25,210 nt of DNA, taken from a virus. A model generated the notes under the pieces. It saw only the letters and a program-made list of their open reading frames with translations, did no database searches and had not been told where the DNA came from. The stretch is from the IMG/VR virus record IMGVR_UViG_3300043436_002639, positions 1 to 25,210 of that record, one strand, 5' to 3'. The translations under genes were made by a program, and so were the position numbers. Of the stretch, positions 2,827 through 23,847 are shown in pieces. Within the stretch, counting starts at the first letter, position 1. Every line of letters begins with the position of its first letter.

Positions 2827-3074
2827 TAAAAGCAAAACGCACACCGCAATTCAACGCAATGTTGAAAATAAACATGCTGATGAAGGGTTACAATGCTGAC
2901 CAGTTCTACAGAAAGTTTAACCTTAATAAGTCTCAGTCAGATCAAATATTATTTAGGTCTCGATTGATTGACGTAGTGTCAGTAGATGGTCTACTTGACT
3001 TAATTGGATTAGAAATTAAAATTAATAAGTATGAGTTGGAAATCGTGGATATACAACAGGGGAATAAGTCTTAA
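2823..3074 (+). CDS. Hypothetical protein with HTH-like helices, 83 aa
   Basis: Starts in the stop of the previous gene (ATGA). The sequence is basic at the N-terminus and largely helical, with FNAMLKINMLMKGYNADQF followed by a phrase resembling a helix-turn-helix (FNLNKSQSDQILF) and an LDLIGLEI helix. A small DNA-binding or regulatory role is possible but rests only on this pattern. Its 3' end overlaps the DnaA-like gene by 44 bases. Confidence 0.55.
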   Translation: MIKAKRTPQFNAMLKINMLMKGYNADQFYRKFNLNKSQSDQILFRSRLIDVVSVDGLLDLIGLEIKINKYELEIVDIQQGNKS

Positions 3075-3624
3075 TGAATTTGCTGACGTAATCAACGAAC
3101 GTTACCCAAAACCAAGTGTTCATTATCACGGTGCATATAGAAGCTACGCTGTGTATCACTGTGTTAAGCTTGGCTTCAACATACGTGACATAGCAAAGGC
3201 GTTTGGTATTAGAGAGAGCGCAGTATCAACACTGACTCGAAAGGTTGTATCTGACAAGATGAAACGCTACAAAGCTGTAGCTGATTCAATGAAAGAATAC
3301 CTAAGCATGAACCTCAATACACCAATGGAATGTAAGACAGCGTTAGAGGAAATTATCGCACCTTATATTACCCAATCGAGGTATCGAGAGTCAACACTAA
3401 AGCGACAGATTATCATGCATTATCTCAGAAACCAACATCAAATGACCCTAAGAGAGATAGCTGAACTGTTCAATCGCAACCATGCGACAGTCATTCACGC
3501 AGAGAAACTAATCAGTAACATGCTATCAATTAAGGACAAATTGGTACTAAAGTATGTTGATGAGCTACGATTAGTGTTGGAAAATGTTGAGAAAAATCTA
3601 ACACAACATTGCGTAACTGATTAA
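3031..3624 (+). CDS. DNA-binding protein with C-terminal DnaA domain-IV-like region, 197 aa
   Basis: Residues about 49-72 (FNIRDIAKAFGIRESAVSTL) form a helix-turn-helix-like unit. Residues about 138-162 (MTLREIAELFNRNHATVIHA) match the pattern of the DnaA box-binding domain, in which a helix-turn-helix is followed by the signature (D/N)HTTVxHA. There is no AAA+ ATPase, so it is not DnaA itself; it may bind a phage origin, act as a regulator, or compete for host DnaA boxes. The start at 3031 lies 44 bases inside the preceding gene; later ATGs would remove the first DNA-binding unit. It is the last gene before the palindrome-bearing gap and could act there, which is inference. Confidence 0.75.
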   Translation: MSWKSWIYNRGISLNEFADVINERYPKPSVHYHGAYRSYAVYHCVKLGFNIRDIAKAFGIRESAVSTLTRKVVSDKMKRYKAVADSMKEYLSMNLNTPMECKTALEEIIAPYITQSRYRESTLKRQIIMHYLRNQHQMTLREIAELFNRNHATVIHAEKLISNMLSIKDKLVLKYVDELRLVLENVEKNLTQHCVTD

Positions 3625-5263: not shown

Positions 5264-5740
5264 ATGAATCATTGGAGAGAACTAATGCCATCACCGTACT
5301 TAGGTGCATGGGACGTACCAACTGGCGGTAGCTTGATTGGTAAAATCAAATCAGTTAGCAAGAAGAAAATTTCTGAGCTACAAGGTGTTGAGAAAATTGT
5401 AATTGAGTTTAGTGACTTACCTAAACCTCTTATGGCTAACTCAACTAACATGAAGGCAATTGCAAGTGCAGTTGGTACACCTGACTTCACTAAGTGGGTA
5501 GGTAAGGAAATCGAGTTGATAACAGCTAAGGTACGCTCGGTACAGGACGGCGACATGGTTGACGCAATCAGAGTTAAGCGCGACAAACCTGCACCGCGTA
5601 AGACACCAATCAGCGACAAGGACTTCCCTAAAGCGATCAAGGCTGTACAAGACGGGACGTGGACTAAGGAACAGATACTTAGCACGAGAATATTAACTGA
5701 CGAACAAATCAAACAGTTAGATGAAGTCCAGAGCAAGTAG
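5264..5740 (+). CDS. OB-fold ssDNA-binding-like protein of recombination cassette, 158 aa
   Basis: The start is set at ATG 5264 (MNHWRELMPSPYLGAWDVP), ten bases after the lipoprotein stop; an earlier in-frame ATG at 5204 lies inside that gene. The pattern of PSPYLGAWD, a strand-rich region, SNSTNMKAIA-like residues (ANSTNMKAIASAVG), WVGKEIEL and DAIRVKR is one I know from phage proteins next to exonucleases that are predicted to adopt an OB fold and bind single-stranded DNA. The C-terminal 45 residues form a helical, charged tail. It overlaps the exonuclease gene by 20 bases, supporting a joint role in recombination or end processing. Confidence 0.7.
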   Translation: MNHWRELMPSPYLGAWDVPTGGSLIGKIKSVSKKKISELQGVEKIVIEFSDLPKPLMANSTNMKAIASAVGTPDFTKWVGKEIELITAKVRSVQDGDMVDAIRVKRDKPAPRKTPISDKDFPKAIKAVQDGTWTKEQILSTRILTDEQIKQLDEVQSK

Positions 5741-6446
5741 TGCGTACTCAATCATGGCTGGTAGTCATGGATTGACTGAAGCTCAACATCGCACGTTGAA
5801 TGAGTTGATGATGAAGATTAAGCTAACTGATAAGCAAGCAGAGACTAGAGACGAGTTGATTAAGAAACGCGACGCACAAATAGAGCTTACTCCTGGTGCT
5901 AAGTCTTTCATCGAAGAGTCGGTTGATGCTGAGATATGGCAATATACTTCGTCGTTCAGTAGCTATAGAACTCAGAAAGGAACTATGTGCGAAGATGAGT
6001 CAATAGGTATTGTTAATTCACTTTGGTTTACTAACTTTGTAAAGTCTGACGAAGAGTTAAGTACAGAGTTTTGGACGGGTCACCCAGATATAATTGACTA
6101 CGATAATGAAATGATTATCGATATCAAGACAGCTACAGACAAGAAGAGTTTCATTAAGCACTACAAGGATCCAAAGAATGCTCAGTACGAGTGGCAAGTG
6201 AAATGCTACCTCTATATGAAAGGCTGGACTAAAGGTAAAGTTGTGTATGTATTGGTAGATACTCCAGAGGAATTGATACCAACATACGAAGACTTATCGT
6301 TGCACGAATGTGGTGACTTACCGTTGGAGCTACGTGTTGCGTCGTTTGATGTAGAATTAACAGAAGAAGATATAAAAATGTTTGACGCTAAAGGTAAACT
6401 TGCGTCAGAATACTATTACGAATATAAATCAAAGTTCAATGTTTAA
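5721..6446 (+). CDS. RecB/YqaJ-type PD-(D/E)XK exonuclease, 241 aa
   Basis: The N-terminus MKSRASSAYSIM resembles the RAS..SxIM opening common to phage exonucleases of this group, which supports ATG 5721 despite the 20-base overlap. GTMCEDE (a RecB-type helix glutamate) lies around residues 90-97, HPD at 121-123 and IDIK at 133-136, giving the PD-(D/E)XK catalytic signature, with QVKCY at 159-163 as the RecB-family Q..Y motif. Such enzymes degrade one strand of DNA ends using a divalent metal to prepare ends for recombination. The ssDNA-binding-like gene before and the DUF3127 gene after it form a compact cassette; no RecT/Erf annealing protein is seen. Confidence 0.85.
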   Translation: MKSRASSAYSIMAGSHGLTEAQHRTLNELMMKIKLTDKQAETRDELIKKRDAQIELTPGAKSFIEESVDAEIWQYTSSFSSYRTQKGTMCEDESIGIVNSLWFTNFVKSDEELSTEFWTGHPDIIDYDNEMIIDIKTATDKKSFIKHYKDPKNAQYEWQVKCYLYMKGWTKGKVVYVLVDTPEELIPTYEDLSLHECGDLPLELRVASFDVELTEEDIKMFDAKGKLASEYYYEYKSKFNV

Positions 6447-6744
6447 AGTTCAAGGAACCCTTAAAGTTAAGGGAGACACTGTACAAGTGTCAGATAAATT
6501 CTCAAAGAGAGAGTTTGTATTGTCAATTCAAGATGGTAACTACGAGCAACTTGTCTCGTTTCAGTTATCTCAAAAAAACGTTACGTTACTTGACGGAGTT
6601 AAAGAAGGTGATGAGTGCGAGATTTCTTTCGGTTTGAAAGGGCGCGAGTGGGTTAGTCCAAAAGACGGTGAAGTTAAGTACTTCAACACGCTTGACGCAT
6701 TCAGAGTTGAAGCAACTGTACCTGCTGGTGAGCCTCCATTCTAA
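6439..6744 (+). CDS. DUF3127-family SSB-like protein, 101 aa
   Basis: The start is set at ATG 6439 (MFKVQGTLKVKGDTVQVSDK), overlapping the exonuclease stop by eight bases. The sequence matches DUF3127: GTL.....VQVSDKFSKREFVL, then a strand-rich OB-like region and KDGEVKYFNTLDAFRVE. The C-terminal tip (EPPF) resembles the acidic DDIPF tail of bacterial SSB, so an ssDNA-binding role that recruits partners is likely. That is inferred from family habit and the tail. The intrinsic terminator follows ten bases after the stop. Confidence 0.8.
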   Translation: MFKVQGTLKVKGDTVQVSDKFSKREFVLSIQDGNYEQLVSFQLSQKNVTLLDGVKEGDECEISFGLKGREWVSPKDGEVKYFNTLDAFRVEATVPAGEPPF

Positions 6745-6751
6745 GGGTAAA

Positions 6752-6970
6752 GTGGGGAGAGATAATCTCCCCTTTTTATTCGGTCGTGCGCTATACACCA
6801 AAGAAGGTTGGATAGTGTTGAGCGACAATGTTAAGTACACGGTAGCGAACTTTGATGAGCTAAACGTATTAGATAATCACGACACAGATGTACTATTCAT
6901 TGAGTCATTTGACGCTCACTACTTGCTCCCATTTGGATCGAGTGATAGAGTTTGTGTGGTTAAAACATAA
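6752..6970 (+). CDS. Hypothetical protein with uncertain start, about 72 aa
   Basis: An open frame ends at TAA 6968-6970 and its translation (LSDNVKYTVANFDELNVLD..., FDAHYLLPFGSS) looks protein-like, with codon use like the neighbouring phage genes. It has no ATG outside the DUF3127 gene. Possible starts are GTG 6752, which lies on the terminator stem, or GTG 6815/TTG 6818 downstream of it. The ATG at 6668 would mean 77 bases of overlap with DUF3127 in a different frame and is unlikely. It could also be a remnant that has lost its start. Confidence 0.4.
   Translation: MGRDNLPFLFGRALYTKEGWIVLSDNVKYTVANFDELNVLDNHDTDVLFIESFDAHYLLPFGSSDRVCVVKT
6754..6777 (+). terminator. Strong intrinsic terminator after recombination cassette
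   Basis: GGGGAGA (6754-6760) pairs perfectly with TCTCCCC (6766-6772) around a five-base loop, followed directly by TTTTT (6773-6777). It sits just after the DUF3127 stop and is the clearest Rho-independent terminator in the window. Confidence 0.85.
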
Positions 6971-7002
6971 AAGTATAACAATTGTACAGCAGAAAAGTAT
7001 AA
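6969..7002 (+). repeat. 34-bp dispersed repeat, copy A
   Basis: AAAAGTATAA occurs at both ends (6969-6978 and 6993-7002, 24 bases apart) with AACAATTG between. It matches copy C at 31 of 34 positions and copy B at 30 of 34. The 21 bases 6966-6986 are identical to 7848-7868. It ends 16 bases before the ATG at 7019. Confidence 0.75.
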
Positions 7003-7018
7003 TAATTAAATCAGAACA

Positions 7019-7366
7019 ATGAAACAAACAGCAATGCAAGAACTAAGAGACGACTTAGTTAAATCATTAGAAACGGGTGATGAAGCTCTTAATGTAATTA
7101 AAGATAAAAAACTTAGAGAAAGTTGTCAAAAGGTTGTCCAATTAACATTAGAATCAATTATTAAAAGAATTGATGAAGAGTTATTAGAAATGGAAAAGGA
7201 CCAAAAAGGTTTTAGTGAAGAACAGGTAAAACAAGCTATTACAAATTTTTACATGAATGATTTTTTACTTACAGAAGAAAAACTAACAAAAGTTATTAAT
7301 AACCTTAAACATAATACTATAACAATTGAACAACAGAAAAGTATAACTAAACAACAAGAACAATGA
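7019..7366 (+). CDS. MKQTAMQEL-family helical protein, 115 aa
   Basis: Begins MKQTAMQELRDDL, an opening I know from a family of small helical proteins in flavobacterial phages, related to the MKQTAVEWL proteins further on. It is nearly all charged helix with a likely coiled coil at about 45-75 (LESIIKRIDEELLEMEKDQ). The last 20 residues (KHNTITIEQQKSITKQQEQ) are encoded by copy B of the dispersed repeat, so the tail is repeat-derived. Copy A precedes the start. Function unknown. Confidence 0.7.
   Translation: MKQTAMQELRDDLVKSLETGDEALNVIKDKKLRESCQKVVQLTLESIIKRIDEELLEMEKDQKGFSEEQVKQAITNFYMNDFLLTEEKLTKVINNLKHNTITIEQQKSITKQQEQ
7313..7346 (+). repeat. 34-bp dispersed repeat, copy B (inside a gene end)
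   Basis: Matches copy A at 30 of 34 positions and lies in the last codons of the 115-aa gene, where it encodes NTITIEQQKSI. Like copy A it ends about 16 bases before the next ATG (7363). Confidence 0.7.
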
Positions 7367-7367
7367 A
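7344..7367 (+). repeat. Exact 24-bp leader repeat, copy 1
   Basis: These 24 bases, ending in the ATG and first A's of the gene at 7363, are identical to 7823-7846. A third version at 8081-8100 matches 19 of its last 20 bases. They form an A-rich translation start region shared by several small genes. Confidence 0.75.
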
Positions 7368-7584
7368 ACTACCTAAAGTTGAAAAAAAATATGTTGAGTC
7401 ATTTAAAAATGCTACACATAATGAATCTGTATCTATTACAGAAAACCAATCATTTACTCAAAGAGAATTAAATGTGATAAAACAAAACTCATTTGATAGG
7501 GGTAAAAGACAAGGAGTGTTATTTACTTCAATACTATTTATAATTTCTATATTATTTACTTATTATAAAATTAAAGAACAATGA
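7363..7584 (+). CDS. Small C-tail-anchored membrane protein, 73 aa
   Basis: The start overlaps the previous stop region (ATGA at 7363-7366). The N-terminal 45 residues are polar and helical (SITENQSFTQRELNVIKQN), then KRQG precedes one hydrophobic segment at about residues 51-67 and a short tail (YYKIKEQ). This topology suggests a tail-anchored inner-membrane protein with a cytoplasmic domain. Repeat B encodes the end of the gene before it. Function unknown. Confidence 0.65.
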   Translation: MKLPKVEKKYVESFKNATHNESVSITENQSFTQRELNVIKQNSFDRGKRQGVLFTSILFIISILFTYYKIKEQ

Positions 7585-7829
7585 CACAATTAATTATTTC
7601 TTTTAGTGACCAATCAAACTCATTTACTTATGGTGTTGAGTTTGGTAGGTTGCTTCAGAAAATAGAACAAGGTGATGACATTGTAACCAATAACGGATTC
7701 CCTATCAGATTAGAGAATAAACAACTAATCAAAAACACTTGTGAGCATTATGGTTATATCCCAATATTTATTGAAATCAATAATGATGAATGGATTGACT
7801 TTATAGCTATGCGGACAACTAATAACTAA
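7581..7829 (+). CDS. Hypothetical protein, 82 aa
   Basis: Coupled to the previous gene by ATGA. A soluble mixed alpha/beta protein (MTQLIISFSDQSNSFTYGVEFGRLLQK..., then IPIFIEINNDEWIDF). No cysteine cluster, membrane segment or known motif. It is followed by the second exact leader repeat and copy C of the dispersed repeat. Function unknown. Confidence 0.65.
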   Translation: MTQLIISFSDQSNSFTYGVEFGRLLQKIEQGDDIVTNNGFPIRLENKQLIKNTCEHYGYIPIFIEINNDEWIDFIAMRTTNN

Positions 7830-7846
7830 ACAACAAGAACAATGAA
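7823..7846 (+). repeat. Exact 24-bp leader repeat, copy 2
   Basis: Identical to 7344-7367. Here the ATG (7842-7844) opens only a 15-residue frame made of copy C, so the leader is present without a normal gene behind it. Confidence 0.75.
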
Positions 7847-7889
7847 GCATAAAAGTATAACAATTGTAAAACATAAAAGTATAACTTAA
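7842..7889 (+). other. 15-residue open frame made of repeat sequence (gene remnant or leader peptide)
   Basis: From ATG 7842 to TAA 7887-7889 the frame reads MKHKSITIVKHKSIT, containing HKSIT twice because the DNA repeats with a 24-base period. The same peptide pattern ends the 115-aa protein (KHNTITIEQQKSIT). It may be the leftover end of a lost gene copy, or a translated leader for the gene at 7902; neither is shown. Confidence 0.35.
7851..7884 (+). repeat. 34-bp dispersed repeat, copy C
   Basis: Matches copy A at 31 of 34 positions, with the same internal AAAAGTATAA pair 24 bases apart (7851 and 7875). It ends 17 bases before ATG 7902. The stretch 7830-7901 holds nothing else recognisable. 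Confidence 0.75.
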
Positions 7890-7901
7890 AAACAAATAAA
7901 A

Positions 7902-8096
7902 ATGGAACACTTAAATTTAAAATTACCAATTAAAATTACACCAACAGATAACAATGGCTATGTGATTAAAGATTCAGAAGAATCAGAATACTTTTTTTAT
8001 ACAGATAAAGAAAGTGGAGAATTAATCTATGATGGCTGTTGTGTAACAGTTGAGAATAAAGAAATTGTATTTGACCATATTAAACAACAAGAATAA
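7902..8096 (+). CDS. Hypothetical protein, 64 aa
   Basis: An acidic, strand-rich product (MEHLNLKLPIKITPTDNNGY..., EYFFYTDKESGELIYDGCC) of the kind predicted to form a small beta sandwich or SH3-like fold. It follows copy C of the repeat. Its last codons and the next start lie in the third version of the leader repeat (8081-8100), with TAATG coupling. Function unknown. Confidence 0.65.
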   Translation: MEHLNLKLPIKITPTDNNGYVIKDSEESEYFFYTDKESGELIYDGCCVTVENKEIVFDHIKQQE

Positions 8097-8100
8097 TGAA
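8081..8100 (+). repeat. Leader repeat, third version
   Basis: Matches the last 20 bases of the exact leader repeat (7348-7367) at 19 of 20 positions and likewise carries the ATG of the following gene, here at 8096. Confidence 0.6.
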
Positions 8101-8338
8101 AAAAGAAACAGCAGTAGAATGGTTTGCTAATACACTATCAAAAGCAGGACTAATAACTCAAGATGACTTTGATAGTTTGGTTAAACAAGCCAAAGAAATG
8201 GAAGCTAAAGAAATGTACAGTAAAGAAGAAGTAATAGAAGCTCATGCTCTTGGTATGGATTATTATGCCGAACCAAATGACTGGGACAAAGTTACACCTA
8301 AACAAAAACTTGAAAATTTATTAAATAAAAAACAATGA
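8096..8338 (+). CDS. MKQTAVEWL-family helical protein, 80 aa
   Basis: Begins MKKETAVEWFANTLSKAG and continues with KQAKEMEAKEMYSKEEVIEA, the layout of a small helical family very common in flavobacterial phages: an EWL helix, a linker, then an EMEK-type helix and a GxDYY-like end (LGMDYYAEP). The role of the family is unknown. It is a paralogue of the gene at 8519, with one other gene between them. Start ATG 8096 is inside the previous TAATG; the end is ATGA-coupled to the next gene. Confidence 0.75.
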   Translation: MKKETAVEWFANTLSKAGLITQDDFDSLVKQAKEMEAKEMYSKEEVIEAHALGMDYYAEPNDWDKVTPKQKLENLLNKKQ

Positions 8339-8508
8339 CACCAAAAGAGAAAGCAAAACAATTAATTGAAAGATTTGGAAAAGAATATGCATCAAAAGTA
8401 GTTGATGAGATAATTGCATCAAACCCACATTCAAACCCTTTAAATTCAGAACTTTATTCATCAATGGATTACTGGTTTGAAGTTAAACAAGCAATTAATA
8501 AACTTTAA
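8335..8508 (+). CDS. MTPKEKAK-family protein, 57 aa
   Basis: Fifty-seven residues starting MTPKEKAKQLIERFGKEY, then VVDEII and a YWFEVKQAINKL end. I recognise this arrangement from a frequent family of short proteins in flavobacterial phages, in which the middle usually reads CALIAVDEI and the end YWxEVKxEI. The function of the family is unknown. A second member is encoded at 13691-13909. Coupled to the previous gene by ATGA. Confidence 0.65.
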   Translation: MTPKEKAKQLIERFGKEYASKVVDEIIASNPHSNPLNSELYSSMDYWFEVKQAINKL

Positions 8509-8518
8509 AAAAAATAAT

Positions 8519-8740
8519 ATGAAACAAACAGCGGTAGAATGGTTATCACAGCAAGTCAGTGAAATTATAGGTACAACACCATTAAGTCAAAAGCAAGAAG
8601 AAAAACTTATAAATACTATTAACAAAGCCTTAGAAATGGAAAAGCAACAGATTATTGAGGCTTTTATAGGACATGATTCCGACACAGAAGATAATTTAGA
8701 AGTTGCAGAACAATACTACAACGAAACATTTAAACAATGA
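8519..8740 (+). CDS. MKQTAVEWL-family helical protein, 73 aa
   Basis: The start is placed at ATG 8519 (MKQTAVEWLSQQVSEIIG), the family's usual first residues; an in-frame ATG at 8477 lies in the preceding gene. The body contains KALEMEKQQIIEAF and the end AEQYYNETFKQ, both hallmarks of the family in flavobacterial phages. It is about the usual length. Function unknown. The next gene starts in its stop. Confidence 0.75.
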   Translation: MKQTAVEWLSQQVSEIIGTTPLSQKQEEKLINTINKALEMEKQQIIEAFIGHDSDTEDNLEVAEQYYNETFKQ

Positions 8741-8898
8741 CAATAGAAGAACTAAAATCAAAACTTACGGGTGACATCTTCAAGGATGGAGAGATAATGC
8801 AACAAATTTATGAATTAAAGAAACAGCTAAACCCAGAGATCGAAACTAACCCAGAGTTAGATGACGATGAGGACGGCTGTTTATATTGCGGAAGTTAA
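8737..8898 (+). CDS. Hypothetical acidic protein with C-terminal CxxC, 53 aa
   Basis: ATG 8737 overlaps the preceding TGA and the frame ends at TAA 8896-8898, three bases before the primase-helicase start. The N-terminal half is helical (MTIEELKSKLTGDIFKDGEI), then an acidic stretch (LDDDEDG) leads to CLYCGS, a half zinc-knuckle that could bind metal as a dimer. No known family. Its position suggests co-expression with the primase-helicase. Confidence 0.6.
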   Translation: MTIEELKSKLTGDIFKDGEIMQQIYELKKQLNPEIETNPELDDDEDGCLYCGS

Positions 8899-8901
8899 AT
8901 T

Positions 8902-11280
8902 ATGATAACTGTATTTAAGAATATTAAGGAGACAAGCACTCCATTCTTTAGGGATATACTCGAGGAGTTTGAACGCATTAGAAATGGTGCGTCAAAGGAA
9001 CTTGTTGAGCGTATCCGAGACAAGGGTGAGAAGTCAGACCGAAACGAACTAAAGAAGGACCTACCAGCGATATGTTTCTCAGGTAAGTTTCTTAGACGTG
9101 AGGCAAAAGCAATTGAGCAACACTCGGGATTTATATGTCTTGACTTCGATGGATTCAAGAATAATAAGTTACGAGACAAAAAGAAAGAGGAGCTATCTGA
9201 AGATAAGTACACATTTGCTTGCTTCATATCTCCAAGCAACGACGGACTAAAACTAGTTGTTAGAATACCTCCGTCAATAGAAAATCACAAACAATACTTT
9301 GCAGCACTTGAAGAGTACTACGCTTGTGATGAATTTGATAAGACAACAAAGGACATATCTCGTGTATGTTACGAATCATATGACCCAGACATTTATGTAA
9401 ATGAATTCTCTGCACTCTGGGATAGCTTACCTACAGAGAAGTACGAACAGCTAAGTATCGTTGATACAGTTCCTACGCTTAAGCTAGAGGAGACAGACGA
9501 AATCTCACGTAGACTACTCGTGTGGTGGGAAGCTAAGTTCGGTTTAGTAGACGGATCTCGCAACCACAACCTATACGTACTGTGCCAGGCTATGAATGAG
9601 TTTGGTATATCAGAGGACATGTGTAAGGTTATCGTACGTCAGTTCGAGCAAAAGGATTTCCCTTGGGTAGAGATTAAGACTACAGTAGAGTCAGCATACA
9701 AACAGACTCACTTGCACAATACTAAGTTCTACGAAGATACTGAGCGACTTGACGCGATTAAACGTGATGTGAAGCAAGGTAAACCAATTGATAGTATCAT
9801 TGAATACGTATCGAAAGGTGACAAGAACGAAGTGAAGAAAGTAATTGAGCACATCATTGAACTGAACAGTGAGGATGAGTTTTGGAGTATAAATAGTAAA
9901 GGTGTAGTGTCTCCAGTGCATCACCTGTTCAAGAAGTTTCTACAGGAGAATGGGTTCTATAAGTACTACCACGCAGGATCAGATAAGTTCGTTTTTGTTC
10001 GCATTCAGAACAACTTAATTGATGATGCTACGGAAGATGACATCAAGGTATTCACGTTAGACTACTTAGATAAGCTTGAGAACAAGTCAATCTATAACTA
10101 CTTTGCAGATAAGACGCGCTACTTCAAGGAAGATTTCTTGTCGTTACTTGACAGGCTTGACCCGAAGTTTGTTGTTGACTCAATAGCTGAGAGCTTCATC
10201 TACTTTAGAAACTGTGCACTTAAGATTACACCAACTGAGATACAGCCAATTGACTACATTGACCTTAGTGGATTCGTCTGGAGCAAGCAGATTATCGATA
10301 GAGATTACGTGCCGTCAGAAACGGATGAGTGTGATTTTAAGAACTTCGTGAAGCTTGTGAGCGGTAATGATGAGTCAAAAAAATCACTTGAGTCAACTAT
10401 AGGTTTCTTGTTGCATGGATACAAGCCAGCTTCGTACTGTCCAGCTGTTATTATTAACGATGAGAAAATCTCAGAGAATCCAGAGGGAGGAACAGGTAAG
10501 GGACTATTCTTTACAGCTATAGGTAAAATCAAGCGACTTGTTGATATTGATGGTAAGGATTTTAAGTTTGACAAAACATTCCCGTACCAAACTGTATCAG
10601 CAGATACGCAAGTACTTGTGTATGATGACGTTGTGAAAAATTTTGATTTTGAACGACTATTCAGTATAATTACGCAGGGAATTACACTTGAGAAGAAGAA
10701 CCGTGACGCGATCAAGGTTCCATTCGAGCAGAGTCCAAAGATTGTAATCACTACAAATTACGCGATTAAAGGTAGCGGTAATTCATTCGAACGACGTAAG
10801 TGGGAGATTGAGTTCAGACAGTACTTTAACCGAAACCACACGCCGCAGGATGAGTTCAAACGACAACTTTTCGTTGAGTGGGACAAAGATGAGTGGAATA
10901 GATTCGACAACTACATGATTGGTTGTTTGATGAGATACCTACAGTCTGGGCTACTTAAGGCTGAGTTTCGTAACATCAAGGCGCGTAAGTTCATTGCTGA
11001 CACTTGCTTCGAGTTCTACGAGTGGTGTACAGACAAGGAGAACCACAGAACAAATACGGCTAACGCTCAGTATCAAATGACTGACCTATACAATGACTTC
11101 ACTGAGAAGTATCCTGACTACGGTAGATACGGTAGATACAACTTGCCTCAAGCAAGATTCTACAAGTGGCTAGATAGCTATGGAGTTTACTTCACAGGAA
11201 ACCAACCAGTAACGTCACGTAACTCAGCAGGCAAAACAATTAAATTCATCAGGTTAGATGACAAACAATTAAGTTTTTAG
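8902..11280 (+). CDS. Primase-helicase (VirE_N/BT4734-like plus SF3-type helicase), 792 aa
   Basis: Residues about 50-170 carry the BT4734/VirE_N-type primase-like region: HSGFICLDFDGF (DFDG at 81-84), FISPSNDGLKLVVRI (108-122) and DISRVCYESYDP (151-162), which fit an archaeo-eukaryotic-type primase core. Residues about 200-265 resemble a PriCT linker domain (NHNLYVLCQAMNEFG...). The helicase follows: Walker A EGGTGKG near 528-534, Walker B VLVYDDV near 572-578 and the sensor asparagine in IVITTNYAI near 615, as in D5/SF3-type ATPases. It should make primers and unwind the phage origin or fork. This architecture is common in Bacteroidota phages and mobile elements. The start three bases after the preceding stop is well placed. 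Confidence 0.9.
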   Translation: MITVFKNIKETSTPFFRDILEEFERIRNGASKELVERIRDKGEKSDRNELKKDLPAICFSGKFLRREAKAIEQHSGFICLDFDGFKNNKLRDKKKEELSEDKYTFACFISPSNDGLKLVVRIPPSIENHKQYFAALEEYYACDEFDKTTKDISRVCYESYDPDIYVNEFSALWDSLPTEKYEQLSIVDTVPTLKLEETDEISRRLLVWWEAKFGLVDGSRNHNLYVLCQAMNEFGISEDMCKVIVRQFEQKDFPWVEIKTTVESAYKQTHLHNTKFYEDTERLDAIKRDVKQGKPIDSIIEYVSKGDKNEVKKVIEHIIELNSEDEFWSINSKGVVSPVHHLFKKFLQENGFYKYYHAGSDKFVFVRIQNNLIDDATEDDIKVFTLDYLDKLENKSIYNYFADKTRYFKEDFLSLLDRLDPKFVVDSIAESFIYFRNCALKITPTEIQPIDYIDLSGFVWSKQIIDRDYVPSETDECDFKNFVKLVSGNDESKKSLESTIGFLLHGYKPASYCPAVIINDEKISENPEGGTGKGLFFTAIGKIKRLVDIDGKDFKFDKTFPYQTVSADTQVLVYDDVVKNFDFERLFSIITQGITLEKKNRDAIKVPFEQSPKIVITTNYAIKGSGNSFERRKWEIEFRQYFNRNHTPQDEFKRQLFVEWDKDEWNRFDNYMIGCLMRYLQSGLLKAEFRNIKARKFIADTCFEFYEWCTDKENHRTNTANAQYQMTDLYNDFTEKYPDYGRYGRYNLPQARFYKWLDSYGVYFTGNQPVTSRNSAGKTIKFIRLDDKQLSF

Positions 11281-13197: not shown

Positions 13198-13477
13198 CAA
13201 AGTAATTTGTGTTGATGATTCGATTAAAGCTGATCAAATTGAGTTTGTACGTGAGGTATACTTGAATTGGATAAAGAAAGATACTGAGTACACTATACGT
13301 GGTTTTACGGATAACGATGGAATAGTTGACGGTATGTGGCTAGAAGAAGTTCACAATATCGAAATTTACCAGAAGCTACTTGGTCGATACCAGGAGCCAG
13401 CATTTAGAATTGACAGATTTAGAAAAGTAGAACATGAAAGAATCGCAAATACAATCGAAAATTATCAAGAAGCTTGA
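13184..13477 (+). CDS. Conserved phage protein, 97 aa (SH3-like fold suspected)
   Basis: The sequence MKIGDKVICVDDSI, followed by KKDTEYTIRGF, MWLEEVHN and EPAFRIDRFRKV, matches a short hypothetical family I know from Bacteroidota phages and prophages. The GDKVxCVDD opening and YTIRG strand suggest a small SH3-like barrel. The function is unknown. It overlaps the helicase gene by 14 bases and the nuclease gene by 44 bases, so the three are probably translated together. Confidence 0.7.
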   Translation: MKIGDKVICVDDSIKADQIEFVREVYLNWIKKDTEYTIRGFTDNDGIVDGMWLEEVHNIEIYQKLLGRYQEPAFRIDRFRKVEHERIANTIENYQEA

Positions 13478-13694
13478 GGCTGATGGATGGTACGTCATTA
13501 AACTGATGAAGACAAACGTAAACGGTATAGCTGACTTAGTTGCAGTTAAACCAAATGACGTTATGTTCGTTGAGGTTAAGACAGAAAAAGGAGTCCTTAG
13601 CGAGATTCAAAAGTATAGAATGAAGGAATTACAGTCTAGAGGGATAAAATATCACGTATGGACAGATTATAACGTAAATTTTGATAAGTTATGA
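13434..13694 (+). CDS. VRR-NUC domain nuclease, 86 aa
   Basis: A stand-alone VRR-NUC domain: Glu3 in an ESQIQSKIIKKL helix, GIADLVAV with Asp34, VEVKTEKG with Glu47 and Lys49, and Gln59 in SEIQ, giving the PD-(D/E)XK metal-binding set. In phages these small nucleases are thought to resolve or nick branched DNA, and they are often paired with SF2 helicases, which fits the gene at 11953. The start at 13434 lies 44 bases inside the previous gene and is needed for the catalytic Glu3 helix. The stop overlaps the next start as ATGA. Confidence 0.85.
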   Translation: MKESQIQSKIIKKLEADGWYVIKLMKTNVNGIADLVAVKPNDVMFVEVKTEKGVLSEIQKYRMKELQSRGIKYHVWTDYNVNFDKL

Positions 13695-14861: not shown

Positions 14862-15960
14862 TGAAGAGGGGTGCAACTTCTCAGAAGCAGCTAGAATCTT
14901 AGCAAAAGAATTTAACATAGAGAACGTTGACTCAGTCCGCAAAAATGTTTCAAATTGGAATCATAAAAACTCATTCGTTGAAGAGTGTGAAAAGCAAGGA
15001 ATCAACCCGAACGAAGTACCACGCTATTGGTACAAAGGGAAACACTTTTCAATCAACGTAAACCCAGGACAAACAAACATAGAGGATGCCGTAAGAAGAA
15101 TAATCTCTCAAGCTAAACTCACACCACAACCGATTACAAAAGTAGTATCAAGTTCTGAAATGGCTCTACGAGTTGTTTTATCTGACATGCACGTTGGATT
15201 AAACCCTGGCGCTAAAAGTCTTTACAGCTACGAGTACAATGCTGATATTTTCAACCAAAGAATTGATCATGTGTACAATTACATTAGAAGTAAAGTAATG
15301 CAGAACGGACCGTACGACGTTTTATTCATTGACGATTTAGGAGATGGACTTGACGGATACAACGGTAAAACAACTCGTGGTGGTCATGAACTAGAACAGA
15401 ACATGACTACCGAACAACAGTTCGAAACATTTGTTCAAGGAAAGTTACGTCTCATTAGAATGTGCGAATCATTTGCTAAGAAAATTATTTGCCGTAACGT
15501 AACTTCAGATAACCACAGCGGTAGCTTCGCATACATTGCTAACCGCACGATACAGATGGTACTTGAACATATCATGCCTAAAGTTGAGTTCATGGTGTTG
15601 GATGAATTCATTACACCAACTTACTATGGCGATCACTGCCACATCTTAACGCATGGTAAAGATGCTAAGTATATGTTCAAAGGATTTCCGTTGAAACTTG
15701 ATCCTAAGACAAGTACAATCTTGTTGGATTACATATATGAAAAAAACATAACATCTAAGTATATACACTTAGATAAAGGTGACTTACACCAACTTGCTTA
15801 CGACAGAGCACGTCGCTTTGATTACCGTAACTTCATGTCATTTGCTCCACCGTCAAATTGGGTGCAGCATAATTTTGGTGTATCTTACTGTGGGTACAGC
15901 GTACAAGAGATACCGAAGTTCAGTAACGATGTACGCCATACCGACATATTCTTTGATTAA
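14824..15960 (+). CDS. Metallophosphoesterase with N-terminal HTH-like region, 378 aa
   Basis: Residues about 4-45 (AIQLVNEEGCNFSEAARIL...) look like a helix-turn-helix, as in resolvase- or terminase-small-subunit-type DNA binders. The rest fits a calcineurin-like phosphoesterase: SDMH (Asp121, His123), DDLGDGLD (Gly173-Asp174), SDNHSG (Asn230-His231) and LTHGKD (His277), in the usual order for two-metal binding. The third motif reads SDNH instead of GNH(D/E). It may be a DNA or RNA phosphodiesterase related to phage Mre11/SbcD-like or DNA-repair exonucleases; the substrate is unknown. It is the last plus-strand gene and its TAA overlaps the stop of the convergent giant gene. Confidence 0.8.
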   Translation: MEKIKSRAIQLVNEEGCNFSEAARILAKEFNIENVDSVRKNVSNWNHKNSFVEECEKQGINPNEVPRYWYKGKHFSINVNPGQTNIEDAVRRIISQAKLTPQPITKVVSSSEMALRVVLSDMHVGLNPGAKSLYSYEYNADIFNQRIDHVYNYIRSKVMQNGPYDVLFIDDLGDGLDGYNGKTTRGGHELEQNMTTEQQFETFVQGKLRLIRMCESFAKKIICRNVTSDNHSGSFAYIANRTIQMVLEHIMPKVEFMVLDEFITPTYYGDHCHILTHGKDAKYMFKGFPLKLDPKTSTILLDYIYEKNITSKYIHLDKGDLHQLAYDRARRFDYRNFMSFAPPSNWVQHNFGVSYCGYSVQEIPKFSNDVRHTDIFFD

Positions 15961-18900
15961 TCAGTCTTTAATGTTTTGATGTATTCTTCTTTTTCTTTAG
16001 GAGACATATTATCCATTCTTCTGATTGAACGCTTTATTTGATTAAGCGTTGTATGAATTTTTATAAGTTGCTCATCATATTTATCTAATTTATGATTATG
16101 CTCTTTCGCCCATTCTTTAGTTTCTTCACTAATCTTAACTTGATTATCTGTAAGTGAATACTTCTTCCCAACTTTATAAAATGCTTTCTGAGCAATATTA
16201 GATAAATCGGTAGCTCCAGTTACAATACCAACTGCTTTAACAAGTGCTAATGCCTCCATCTTGTCTTTACCTTCTTTTGTTAAAGTCTTCTCAGTCATGT
16301 TACCTTGGTAGTTATCTTCATATATACCAGTTGCAGCAGACTTAGCTATATCTTTAAATTCTACAGCTTTTTGAGCAGCTATTCCATATACACCGAACTT
16401 ATCTAAATATGTGATATCCTCATCTTCATAGAATTTCCACTCCTCATCTTTAAAGAATTTCTCTCTTCTTTTTTTCTCCTGGTCTTCATCTAGTTCGCGT
16501 TTCCCTTGATCTTCTCTTGCCTGATTAATTTCAGCTAATTTAGCCAACCATTTATCTTCAGATGGAGCAAACATATTATCTTCTCCTTCTCCAAGCATCC
16601 AGTTAGCACCACCTACCACTAATGGGTCTAGTAATGGAATAGCTGATAGTAAATCTGTTAATCCTTGTGTGGCAGTTAATTTTAACGCACTTTCAAATGC
16701 TTTCTTTAATGCTTCTTCATCTTCATCATCTAAGAATAAACTTATTGCTCCTTGTATTACAAAATACTTCCAAGCTATATTTATCGTATGGAACGTCATT
16801 AATCCAGCTATAGCACCAGTTAAATCTTGGATAGATTCTTTCCTTAAGCTCCATTCACCTCTACGTATTTTAGCTATATCTCCATAAATTCTATTCTTTT
16901 GGTTTATAGAGAATGAGCTAAATGGAAACAATATTTGTCTAACTCCAGATGCCCATACAGTATTATTAGATCCTAATATACCACGCTCAGCAGCATCACT
17001 AGGTAGAATCTGAACTTTTGTTCTTGTTTCAGCATATTGAGCCGCATCTTCATTAACATTATTTAAGTCAACTTTAATACCATTTTTTCTACAGTATTTT
17101 CTGTAATATGCCATCCATGCACCAATAGCAGCTAATTTATCTCCTTTTTGGTTAGTATATTCTAGCATCTTTTCAGCTAACCATGCGGGCGCATCGAATA
17201 CAGTTCCAGCAGCTTCAGCAGCTTTACTTCTTTTCATCACCTCATCTTGAATCTTTTCAGTAAACCTAATAGCATCCATGCCTCTATTCGCAACCTGAGA
17301 GTCTGCTTTAGCTATAAACTTCTGCACCTCTGGATCAAATGAATCTTTAAATATAGTCGCTACACTTCTAGGTCCAACTGCAAAAATTGTATCAAAGTAA
17401 GTAGTAAATGTTTGAGCAAGGACATTCTTAAATGATCCTAATGCAGCAGCTCCAGACAATGTAGATAATTTGCTGAGGAATTTCTTAACATTTTTCTCAA
17501 CCTCACTATCTTTAGCTCCTTTATTTTCTTTTGCTGTAATATATCTTTTATAAGCTTCTCTGATTATATCAGCATCTTTTGATTTTCTATATTTATCACG
17601 ACCCATGATATCATCAAACTTACTAGAAGCCTGGTATGCTTTATACTTAGTTCTAGCTTCAGCTGTATACAAATCATTCATAGCAGCTCTATATGATCCA
17701 AAGTTATTATCTTCGAAATCCATGTTTATGAATCTATCAGTTAACGCTTCTGGTCTTCTAGCCTCCATTAATACTCCTGATTTATTTACAGTCATACCAG
17801 TGAAGTTTATAAACTCGATTAGATTAGGATCATCAGGAATAGCTCTTTCTATTGAACTATATCTATCTGGCGTATAGAACTCATCTCTACCAATAAGCGT
17901 ATTATGCATACCAAGAGCATGATCATATAATGATGGGTACTTTTTATACCACATATCCTGCATCCATTTAACTGCCTCTAAATTGCTCTTCTCTGCATTA
18001 TTGTTTATCTCATCAACAGTAATCGATTCATTAACAGTACCATCAGATTTTAATATACCTAGCTTTTTAGCTGCTTCTTCTTGTAAATCAGCTATAGCTA
18101 AATTAACTCTACCAGCAGCGTTTCTTAATTGATTAATAGATTCAAGCACTAGTTTTTTTCTTCTTAAGAATTCAGCTGGCTTACCTTCACTATCTAATAC
18201 ATTTCTTTGTACAAATGAAAGCAATGCTCTTTCAGCTTTATTTTCAGAATCGAAGAAATTTTTTACTTTTTTAAATTTATTCTTGTAATCTTTTCTTAGC
18301 TGATTAGTTTCATTCTCACTTCTATTGTATCCCTTTTGTATTAATCCTAATCCAGACTCTTTCAAGAACTTTACAACATCTCCAGATTTTAAAGATTTTT
18401 TCTCTAGCATACTTTCAATGTAATTGAATAAGCTATTATAACCTCTAGCTATTGATCTTCCAGCGCGTAATAATCCAATAGGGGCAAACTTAAGGTTACT
18501 ATCTGCAATAGCTTTAGTTCCTTCATAGTTAGCTACAATCTTATTGAGTCCAGTTTCAAATCCATTATCCAAATACATTGTTAATGCATTAACTACATCG
18601 ATAGCATCAGATAAATTTAAGTAATCTACATCTACATTAGCAGCTCTCTTAACTAAATCGCTTACATCTGGATCATTCTCAACGATAGCTTTAATAGAAG
18701 ATATTTTTTGTTGAACAAAAGATTTAAGTTTGTTAAGCTCATTTTCTTTAGCTTCCTTAATCTTTTTGCTCATATCTTCATCGGTCATTCCATCAGATGA
18801 ATTCTCACCAAACATAGTATCGTAAATGTCAGATATTTCTTTTTTAGATTTCTTAAGTATCTTATCATTATTCTTTTGAACATAATCAAATACTTTATTG

Positions 18901-21900
18901 AAATCAACATTCTTTCTGAATTCGATACCAAGTGGATCTGTTTGTTTATTGTATTTAGATAAAGATTCTTTTATCTGTTTAGCTATAGCTAAGTGTGCGT
19001 CAATATTATCAACTAAAGCTGGGTTAATTCTAGCGAACTCCTTTGCAGTTGATGCAATTGGTTCAACCATGTTTTTATTATTCTTGATAGCCTTATTGAT
19101 AGTATCAATTTCTCTCAATTTTTGAACATACTCAGCCTTCATCATTTTGTTGAATACGTAATCAATAAAGTCATCAACAGATGATTGTTTACTGAAATTA
19201 ACTCTAGACAACTTATTCATGATGTACTTAAACTGCATGCGATCCATTTGACCCTTAGTCACCATTGATTTTATAACGGTTGAGATATTCTTTATCACAC
19301 TCATTATTTCTTTCTTGGAATCGCGCTTTCCTTTAAAGTACGCTTTTACTTCTTCTTTTAATCTGCTTATTTCTTTAGAAGGAACTTTTTCATCACTAGC
19401 AACAGTTACTTCTGATTCTGATTCCTCTACAATAGGTTTATTAATATTTTCAGCTACAAACTTCTTATAATCATACTCAGAAATACTTGCGTTATTATCC
19501 TTTATGAATTTATATCCATCTTTTATTGCTTCTGATAATGATTTACCAGCTTTGTATGATGCTCTGATTATTTTCAATGAAGTATTGGCAAGCATTTGTA
19601 ATGATCCACCTGAGAAATTAAACATCTTACCTTTAAAAGAAGTAGCTGCAATAGCTCTATCAAGTAATGCTAGTATCTTATCATCTTTCTCTCTTTTAAA
19701 ATCCTCAGTTAATTCTGTAGCTAGATTTAATCTATTCGTATCATTTGACTCTCTTATTTTCTTATACTCAGATATAGCTGCTTTTCTTTTTGCATCATCT
19801 TTTATACCAACGAACTTTCCATTTTCATTTTTTTGAGAAACAGAATATGTACCATCAGATTTTTCAGACACGGTAAACTCAGCATCCTTAATTTTGAATG
19901 TAAGTTTCTTTTCTTTTTTGGACTCTTTAGCTATTTCTTGAAGTAAATTATCTTCAAAATCTTTAACTTCTTTTTCTAGTCTATCTTCTTCCGCTTTTAA
20001 CTCTTCTAATGTTTTAGACTCAAACTCTTCTTTTGCCTTTTTAGCATCTTCTTTTTTACTTCTTTTTTTATTCTCTACAACTGGCTCTTTCCCTTCGGTA
20101 GCTAAGTTCAAATTAACACCAGGTTTCTTGTTTTTAGCTAAAGCTTGATCTTTTAAAATTTGCTCAGCTTTTTCACCGATTATTCTTCTTTCTAATCCTG
20201 TTTCTAATTCTTTTACCCTTACTACAGCTTTACCTTTCTTATCTCTTCTTCTGCCTATAATTTTGTATTTTTTACCGTCAAAAGTAATAGCATTAGTTTC
20301 ATCTTGAGCCTTAACTTCTGTCTGTGGAAATAAAGAAATACCAAATGAAGATATATCAGAATCTTTAACATCATCTATAGATCCTAACTCAATTATTTGT
20401 GAATTTGTTTCAAATACAACTGTATTCTCATTTTCAGGATCAATTCTAATTGTTCCATATTCATCGCCAATATAACCAGCTTGATCTAAATTGTCATTAA
20501 TGGTTCCTTCGTCTTTATTTCTAGACAATTCTTCATTTAATGCATCAAGTTCATTTTGAGGAATAACAACATCTTCAACCTCTGTTTCTCTTATTAACGG
20601 AGTAATAATCTTATCGTATTTGTTGTATATTTCATCAAATACTTTTAAGTCATTTTCATCAGTAATCTTAGTTCGATCAATTTTACCATCAGTCATATAC
20701 TGTTCAGCGTTTGGAATAGCTTCCATTAATTCAGCTTGTTCCTTTGCTCTTAAGTCTTCTACTTTTTGGGTGCTTTCTTGGGTAGCTTCTTGCCCTTCGA
20801 GGCTTTGTCCCATTCCTTCACGTTGACCCCCTGTTTCTCCAGCTTGCTCTTGTTCGCGTGGAAGAACTTCCTCTGTGCTTCGCTCTTGTACGGCATTTCC
20901 TTTTAGTTTAGTGTATTCATCTCTAGTTACGGTATATACGTAATCATCTGTTGTTTTTCCAAATCTACCAACCTTAGAGGTTCCTCTATATCTAGCTCTA
21001 TCTCTAAACTCGGTTGGAACTTGATCCAATCCTCTAGCGGTAATACGAATTTCTCCTTTAGCATCATCTTCAACAAGTTGTTTCATCTCATTGTCGATAT
21101 CAACTATACGTTGCTTTTGATCTTCAACTAATGAAGGTTCTTTTCCTTCAATCTCACTTTGTAACTTTTGTTTTTCTTCAATCAACTTCATTGCTTCTTG
21201 CTGATTGGTCTCTAACATATTAGAAGGTACTTTTCCTAATAATGCTTTAAACTCACCAACAGCTCGCAGCTTAGCTTTTGCTTCAGGAATTGACATTTCT
21301 CCTTGTATAATCTTTGACTTCAAGTCATTCTTAAACAAGTCTTGCAAGTCTTCGTCAGTTGCAATTTCTTTAGATAAACCAAAGTTCTCAGGATCACTTA
21401 ACTGTTGCACTGTAGTTCCTAAATTAGACATTGAGTTTACAGTTGCTCCAGCAAAAGATCCGACTAAGAATTCTCTTAATGCATTTTTACCAAATGTACC
21501 CCAATCTTCTTGGAATACATCTTTATCTTTATAAATTTCGTATAAATCCTTTATTTCTTGTTCAGCAGCAGATTGAGATACTTCAACTCCACCTTCTATA
21601 ATACCTTTTCCAGCTACTTTAATTAATTTATCTGCAACTACTTTTTTCATATCAGCATATATAGCTGTATTCATCATTTCCATTGTCGCACCTTTCGGAA
21701 GACCCGATAATAATCTAGCCACACGTTTAGCAACAAATCCTGAAGCAGCCTTGTTACTTGTGATTTTTTCTAATCCATAAGATTCTAATGCTGCCGTAGC
21801 AGTAGCTATAGAGAAAGATAGTTTTCTTTTATCATCATCTGATATATCTAATCCATCCATTGAATCGAAAGCATTAGAGTATCCCATACCCCAGAAATAT

Positions 21901-23846: not shown

Positions 23847-23847
23847 C

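What the first reader, a model, noticed from the sequence alone, without database searches (positions are those of the whole stretch)
6961..7901. Small genes bracketed by three copies of a 34-bp repeat: possible cassette-exchange locus
Three near-identical 34-bp blocks (6969-7002, 7313-7346, 7851-7884; 29-31 of 34 positions shared in each pair) each end about 16 bases before a gene start and divide the region into cassettes: gene 7019, then genes 7363+7581, then 7902 onward. Each block contains AAAAGTATAA twice, 24 bases apart. A perfect 21-bp match links copies A and C. Copy B lies inside a coding end, so the repeats are partly protein-coding. This looks like a place where accessory genes are gained or lost by recombination between short homologies, or like a shared regulatory leader in front of each cassette.
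Basis: partly seen in the sequence, partly recalled or inferred. Interest (0 to 1): 0.62.

Follow-up and report, generated by a model that had tools for sequence, protein, structure and literature searches.

The report
Phage gene-cassette island with shared joints
In a family of viruses that probably infect Bacteroidota bacteria, a short stretch between the DNA-handling genes holds an exchangeable string of small genes, and the repeats mark shared 'stop, leader, start' joints at which one small gene is swapped for another without losing its translation signal.

Summary
The repeats are real: three 34-bp blocks, 29-31 of 34 identical; the best match in Markov-resampled sequence averages 24, maximum 26. 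They lie in a low-GC (27.5%) hypervariable island, 6963-8740. Relatives 95-98% identical on both sides carry different small genes there. The block occurs in 19 other IMG/VR records, always 15-18 nt before a start codon. Records sharing upstream gene plus block and downstream gene hold 0, 1, 3 or more small genes between them, switching at the start codon. The block is the long form of a shorter joint of two types (N, S): 529 instances in 225 loci, before 200 protein families. The joint ends the upstream ORF and supplies an SD-less leader with adenines at -3, -6, -12 and -13, as favoured in Flavobacterium. At reconstructed junctions both parents share a median 32 nt at joints, 10 nt elsewhere. 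Cassette exchange and shared leader are supported; a promoter role is not. That joints drive recombination is plausible but unproven. It works like mycobacteriophage start-associated sequences but is not a member: a new variant of a known kind.

The parts
5721..6446 (+). exonuclease gene (phrog_5715; weak RecE-like and Cas4-like matches), candidate recombination enzyme next to the island
   Evidence: E 1.6e-36
6439..6744 (+). single-strand DNA-binding protein gene (phrog_4932 / DUF3127)
6754..6772 (+). intrinsic-terminator-like hairpin between the recombination genes and the island; 7-bp stem kept in L006 with changes on both sides of a pair
6780..6970 (+). conserved left flank of the island: coding region (..LYTKEGWIVLSDN..), start uncertain (possibly a GTG near 6730)
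   Evidence: conserved in L005, L006, L007
6969..7002 (+). 34-bp block A at the left edge of the island (two AAAAGTATAA, 24 bp apart)
7003..7018 (+). S-like leader part of joint A (TAATTAAATCAGAACA) before ATG 7019
   Evidence: sequence
7019..7366 (+). cassette gene (MKQTAMQEL..), C-terminus encoded by block B
7313..7346 (+). 34-bp block B
7347..7362 (+). N-type joint (CTAAACAACAAGAACA) before ATG 7363
7363..7584 (+). cassette gene, small protein with a hydrophobic stretch near its C-terminus
   Evidence: no family match
7581..7829 (+). cassette gene
   Evidence: no confident family match
7827..7841 (+). N-type joint (TAAACAACAAGAACA), supplies the stop of the upstream gene
7842..7889 (+). mini-ORF of 15 codons plus stop formed by joint plus block C (MKHKSITIVKHKSIT*); similar mini-ORFs in L067, L068, L070, L072, L080
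   Evidence: sequence
7851..7884 (+). 34-bp block C
7887..7901 (+). A-rich leader (TAAAAACAAATAAAA) before ATG 7902
7902..8096 (+). cassette gene
8081..8095 (+). N-type joint (TAAACAACAAGAATA)
8096..8338 (+). cassette gene, AVEW family
8335..8508 (+). cassette gene, TPKEKA family (phrog_21441, unknown function)
   Evidence: E 2.6e-8
8519..8740 (+). last cassette gene, AVEW..YYNETF family (predicted three-helix protein); right boundary of the island runs through it (8630) or near its end (8707)
8737..8898 (+). conserved right flank gene; its first codons are replaced in L006 and L007
8902..11280 (+). primase-helicase (BT4734-like N domain, DUF5906), conserved right flank

Best explanation
The region is a gene-cassette island of a phage that most likely infects Bacteroidota. 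Small genes (about 50-120 aa) are gained, lost and replaced there, mostly one at a time. Neighbouring genes meet at a shared joint, which does three things in about 20 nt: it ends the upstream ORF (ATGA overlap or TAAG), it supplies an A-rich Shine-Dalgarno-less leader, and it places the next ATG. The 34-bp blocks are a long form of this joint, made of a 24-bp unit in direct tandem plus the leader, with stops in all three frames. Because the joint is the same in front of unrelated genes, a crossover inside it swaps the downstream gene while keeping expression intact. The likely machinery is annealing-type recombination by the phage's own exonuclease and SSB encoded just upstream. Shown: the shared joint, empty and filled sites, breakpoints at gene starts, the adenine determinants, and joint-length overlaps at junctions. 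Inferred: the enzyme, and that homology in the joint, rather than selection on random crossovers, directs the exchange.
For: Flanks 95-98% identical to L005/L007 but island genes different; identity is lost at 7036/7024 and regained at 8630/8707. The block in other records always lies 15-18 nt before an ATG. Same upstream gene plus block and same downstream gene with 0 (L074, L077, L082), 1 (L078), 3 (L075, L098) or 4+ (L073) genes between. L069 and L071 are identical through the block, then have one gene versus three genes plus a second block, and rejoin at the next start. Of breakpoints, 57% (right ends) and 58% (left ends) lie at gene starts, null 8% and 11%, largest null 13% and 18%. Joints N and S precede 76 of 454 distinct genes, about 1.5 expected. 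There are 529 joints, 424 distinct proteins and 200 families; many of the larger families occur behind both joint types, and upstream stops sit in fixed register. Joints N and S both carry A at -3, -6, -12 and -13, the positive determinants in F. johnsoniae (PMC6847099). Parental overlap at junctions has a median of 32 nt with joints and 10 nt without, p = 0.016. Exonuclease and SSB lie adjacent.
Against: Breakpoints at gene starts occur almost as often without a recognised joint (right ends 32% versus 41%, p = 0.24; small genes 30% versus 46%, p = 0.03), so gene-boundary mosaicism is general here and the joint is not shown to be its cause. The overlap comparison rests on only 7 joint junctions. 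Several window junctions (7581, 8335, 8519, 8737) have only loose versions of the joint. No annealing protein (RecT, Erf or Sak type) was identified in the window. L006 has no block at its left edge. All data are metagenomic contigs; no isolate was found.
Confidence: 0.68

Rival explanations
1. Selection only: crossovers happen anywhere by illegitimate or relaxed recombination, and survivors are those at gene boundaries. The joint is merely a strong translation leader that travels with genes and was spread by hitch-hiking.
For: Breakpoints at gene starts are nearly as frequent without joints. Both joint types carry all four adenine determinants of strong translation.
Against: Joint-length parental overlaps at junctions (median 32 versus 10 nt). 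Exact 15-nt identity before 200 families in two discrete types is more than leader optimisation needs. Families are found behind both types.
Confidence: 0.3
2. Regulatory element: each block is a promoter or binding site of a phage regulator (two direct AAAAGTATAA boxes 24 bp apart) that switches on the cassettes behind it.
For: Fixed position 15-18 nt before starts. A terminator-like hairpin upstream of the island implies that a new promoter may be needed downstream of it.
Against: No TAnnTTTG -7 box on the + strand between 6040 and 10562. Sigma-70-like sites no commoner than in shuffles. Copy B is translated within gene 7019. The first AAAAGTATAA is degenerate in about half of the records. 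L006 does without a block.
Confidence: 0.18
3. Site-specific recombination: the blocks are recognition sites of a dedicated recombinase, as in integrons.
For: Repeated short sequence at cassette edges; single-gene units.
Against: No tyrosine integrase or serine recombinase in 8 records, including two of 67 kb. No stable fold in the single strand. The half-units vary and exchange points are spread over the joint.
Confidence: 0.04
4. Assembly artefact: short repeats joined unrelated contigs.
For: All records are metagenomic; repeats favour false joins.
Against: Blocks of 34-70 bp are shorter than ordinary reads. The same kind of junction recurs in independent data sets (L074 as against L077/L082; L075 and L098). 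Joints are in fixed register with upstream stops.
Confidence: 0.03
5. Coding remnant: the block is the tandemly duplicated end of a small gene (KHKSITI..QQKSITKQQEQ or KYNNCTAEKYNN) kept as peptide or mini-ORF.
For: 24 bp = 8 codons. Mini-ORFs in window copy C, L067, L072 and L080. In L071 copy 2 and L097 the block follows a truncated AVEW-type gene start.
Against: In other records a stop codon comes before the block. Differences between copies are mostly amino-acid changing (by inspection, no test made). It explains origin, not position.
Confidence: 0.1

Closest known systems
Start-associated sequences (SAS) and extended SAS of cluster K mycobacteriophages (PMC3203893)
   Same: Short repeated sequence just before start codons of many unrelated non-structural genes, sometimes containing the upstream stop codon, with a longer form in about half the cases; proposed role in translation initiation.
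   Different: Sequence unrelated (GGGATAGGAGCCC with SD core). The extended SAS is a pair of 17-bp inverted repeats, here it is direct 24-bp units. Here no SD, as expected for Bacteroidota, and the repeat sits at swapped-gene boundaries.
PeSL elements (early promoter plus stem-loop) of T4-type phages (Arbiol 2010, Comeau 2014; described in PMC4503421; originals not held)
   Same: Repeated short elements at gene boundaries in regions of intense shuffling.
   Different: PeSLs carry a promoter and a terminator stem-loop; the blocks here have no stem-loop and no recognisable promoter.
Integron gene cassettes (own knowledge)
   Same: Arrays of single small genes with a shared sequence at each junction.
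   Different: No integrase and no foldable attC-like site found.
Relaxed homologous recombination by phage recombinases producing mosaicism (PMC3945230, abstract only)
   Same: Phage-encoded enzymes exchanging DNA over short or diverged homology is the mechanism proposed here.
   Different: There the key players are Rad52-like recombinases of temperate phages; no such protein was identified here.

Membership tests
SAS/ESAS of cluster K mycobacteriophages | repeat a few nt upstream of start codons of unrelated genes, one orientation | tested here: met
SAS/ESAS of cluster K mycobacteriophages | 13-bp consensus GGGATAGGAGCCC with SD core | tested here: not met
   joint sequences TAAACAACAAGAACA / TAAATCAGAATAAG
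SAS/ESAS of cluster K mycobacteriophages | extended form made of 17-bp inverted repeats | tested here: not met
   direct 24-bp units; no inverted repeat pair within a block
T4 PeSL | early promoter in each element | tested here: inconclusive
   no TAnnTTTG on the + strand; sigma-70-like sites at chance level; a phage-specific promoter cannot be excluded
T4 PeSL | terminator stem-loop in each element | tested here: not met
   only one terminator-like hairpin position in 6400-9000, at 6754-6772, upstream of the island
Integron cassette array | integrase or other site-specific recombinase | tested here: not met
   PF00589 and PF00239 absent from 8 records, which may be incomplete
Integron cassette array | foldable attC-like site | tested here: not met
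   no block folds clearly better than shuffles (z -1.6 to 0.9, RNA parameters)
Bacteroidota-type SD-less translation leader | A at -3, -6, -12 and -13, no SD | tested here: met
   93% of joint genes have all four, against 22% of others (determinants from PMC6847099)
Bacteroidota-type SD-less translation leader | joint raises translation in a Bacteroidota host | not testable with these tools
   needs a reporter assay

The most novel reading that the evidence does not exclude
Bacteroidota phages share a common 'universal joint' (stop, SD-less leader, start) that acts as an exchange currency: any small gene bearing it can be swapped into the array of another, unrelated phage by crossover in the joint, an integron-like gene-capture system without an integrase, with the 34-bp block as its high-homology form.
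Probability: 0.35. Interest if true: 0.8.

Novelty: new variant of a known kind. Interest (0 to 1): 0.6.

Why it matters
Phage genomes hold large numbers of small genes of unknown function, and how they are collected and still expressed is poorly known. Here the same two short joints precede members of about 200 protein families in 225 loci. That gives a sequence handle to collect such genes across uncultured Bacteroidota phages, and a testable model of how a new gene can be inserted already carrying its stop, leader and start.

Tried and rejected
DNA search of GenBank phages with the whole window and with the island: no match. Joint probes in GenBank phages: only chance hits inside Staphylococcus integrase genes for the N probe (80-90% identity, E 0.1), none for S. 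Block in 84,980 species genomes: none; N joint: 2 exact hits, in Arenibacter and a Chitinophagales MAG, not followed up. Families: window cassette proteins match nothing in Pfam at its curated cut-off, nothing in PADLOC, and only unknown-function PHROGs; ten representative cassette proteins likewise have no Pfam match and only unknown-function PHROGs. Integrase and resolvase: none. RNA folding of the blocks: nothing significant. Promoter scans: chance level. Joint versus non-joint breakpoint rates: no clear difference, which weakens the recombination claim. The original PeSL papers are not in the library.

Full report
OBSERVATION. The three 34-bp blocks are present at the stated coordinates, with 29-31 of 34 positions shared and the 21-bp perfect match between A and C (none expected by chance). 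In Markov resamples of the region the best 34-mer pair averages 24 and never exceeds 26 matches. The blocks end 16-17 nt before ATGs at 7019, 7363 and 7902. One detail is wrong: copy B has AAAAGTATAA only once.

SETTING. The window is a 25.2-kb virus record. The primase-helicase at 8902-11280 has a BT4734-like N-terminal domain. Its named relatives are phages of Flavobacterium, Cellulophaga, Polaribacter, Nonlabens, Maribacter and Bacteroides, all under 60% identical, so the host is probably a member of the Bacteroidota (inference). Upstream of the blocks lie an exonuclease gene (phrog_5715, E 1.6e-36) and an SSB gene, followed by a terminator-like hairpin at 6754-6772. In L006 the stem is kept although its sequence has changed, including one pair altered on both sides. 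The segment 6963-8740 has 27.5% GC against about 40% on both sides and consists of seven small + strand genes with no confident function.

THE ISLAND IS HYPERVARIABLE. Three records carry the primase-helicase at 92-100% protein identity. L005 is 98% and L007 95% identical to the window over 6450-6960, and both are 97-98% identical after 8737. Between these flanks their small genes differ almost completely. Identity ends at 7036 (L005), 7024 (L007) or 6939 (L006) and resumes at 8630, 8707 or 8705/8743. The last island gene of L005 resembles the 5' half of window gene 7019 joined to the 3' half of gene 8519 at a shared LEMEK motif, so exchange also happens inside genes.

THE BLOCK IN OTHER RECORDS. 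A pattern scan found the block in 16 stretches of viral contigs; a second scan with the right half added L096-L098. It always precedes an ATG by 15-18 nt and was not found in 84,980 prokaryote genomes. One group shares the upstream gene MKRQTAKANIQ.. with the block and, where the contig reaches that far, the downstream gene ending in the MKQPNKDEIEKLL.. type. Between them lie no gene (L074, L077, L082), one (L078), three (L075, L098) or at least four (L073), and the sequences part at the start codon. The gene METKVLDTVY follows the block in L075, L096 and L098 with a different gene behind it each time, and with a different gene before it in L096. L069 and L071 are identical through the block, then carry one gene versus three genes plus a second block, and become alike again at the next start codon. 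Even between the window and L005, whose upstream flank is 98% identical, the block itself differs at several positions.

THE JOINT. The block is the long form of something commoner. In the 38 record stretches compared, 76 of 454 distinct genes have, directly before the ATG, one of two 15-nt sequences, N (TAAACAACAAGAACA) or S (TTAAATCAGAATAAG), with at least 12 of 15 matches, against about 1.5 expected in scrambled leaders. In all loci held there are 529 joints in 225 loci, with an ORF of 35 aa or more behind 87% (N) and 80% (S), against 36% of control ATGs. They precede 424 distinct proteins in 200 families, and many of the larger families occur behind both types. Upstream genes end in fixed register: a 4-nt ATGA overlap (132 of 267) or 12 nt before for N, TAAG-ATG (109 of 179) or 11 nt before for S. 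The three blocks contain stops in all three frames, bare joints in two. So the joint ends whatever gene comes before it and starts whatever gene comes after.

TRANSLATION. In Flavobacterium johnsoniae, adenines at -3, -6, -12 and -13 are measured positive determinants of initiation (PMC6847099). N, S and the leader of copy C have A at all four; the leader of copy A has two. Of joint-bearing genes 93% have all four, against 22% of other genes. The leader role is therefore well supported by sequence, though not measured for these phages.

RECOMBINATION. Among related records, 57% of the places where identity is lost and 58% of those where it is gained lie at gene starts; random positions give 8% and 11%, at most 13% and 18%. 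Where a record could be explained as upstream from one relative and downstream from another, the stretch shared by both parents had a median of 32 nt at joints and 10 nt at other starts (7 against 27 cases, p = 0.016). In L098 and L075 it was 72 nt, exactly block plus joint (L075 was scored as 'no joint' because its leader is a variant). On the other side, gene starts without a recognised joint carry breakpoints almost as often (right ends 32% against 41%, p = 0.24; small genes 30% against 46%, p = 0.03). The joint is thus a likely crossover homology where present, but it is not the only route, and selection for intact genes may do much of the work. No tyrosine or serine recombinase was found in eight records, which speaks against an integron-like enzyme. 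The exonuclease and SSB next door make annealing-type recombination the likely route (inference; phage recombinases of the Rad52-like group are implicated in such mosaicism, PMC3945230, abstract only).

PROMOTER. There is no TAnnTTTG box on the + strand between 6040 and 10562 (consensus from PMC9723704), sigma-70-like sites are at chance level, and the blocks do not fold. A phage-specific promoter is not excluded.

COMPARISON. It works most like the start-associated sequences of cluster K mycobacteriophages (PMC3203893), but consensus and extended form differ, so it is not a member. T4 PeSLs also mark shuffled genes but carry a promoter and a stem-loop (as described in PMC4503421); the stem-loop is missing here. 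I found no description of these joints in the open literature held, which is a limited search. Verdict: a new variant of a known kind.

LIMITS. All records are metagenomic; some were chosen by exact patterns, so conservation inside the pattern is not evidence. Gene calls are mechanical. The joints were defined from the same data in which they were counted.

Noticed in passing
6754-6772: Strong terminator-like hairpin just after the SSB gene, overlapping a possible ORF start; stem kept in L006 by changes on both sides of a pair.
   Followed up: partly
8519-8740; about 95 relatives in other loci: AVEW..EMEKQQI..YYNETF proteins are by far the commonest cassette family; AlphaFold model of three helices, mean pLDDT 88. 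Two members share 3' halves with different 5' halves, so the family is itself mosaic. Function unknown.
   Followed up: partly
7184-7200 and 8630-8648: Shared TTAGAAATGGAAAAG motif at which the last island gene of L005 appears fused from relatives of two window genes.
   Followed up: partly
7842-7889; L067, L068, L070, L072, L080, L071, L097: Mini-ORFs of about 15-20 codons formed by joint plus block; in L071 copy 2 and L097 they begin with a truncated AVEW-type gene start. Origin of the block unexplained.
   Followed up: partly
3031-3624: Protein with a DnaA-like C-terminal helix-turn-helix (PF08299, E 6.5e-12), possibly a replication initiator of the phage.
   Followed up: no
23677-23850 (overlapping the start of the minus-strand ORF 15957-23846): 87-nt tandem duplication (77% identical) at the N-terminus of a 2629-aa ORF.
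   Followed up: no
13434-13694: VRR-NUC / Holliday-junction-resolvase-like nuclease, another candidate recombination gene.
   Followed up: no
L099 (Arenibacter), L100 (Chitinophagales MAG): The only two exact N-joint 20-mers in the GTDB genomes; whether they lie in prophages was not checked.
   Followed up: no
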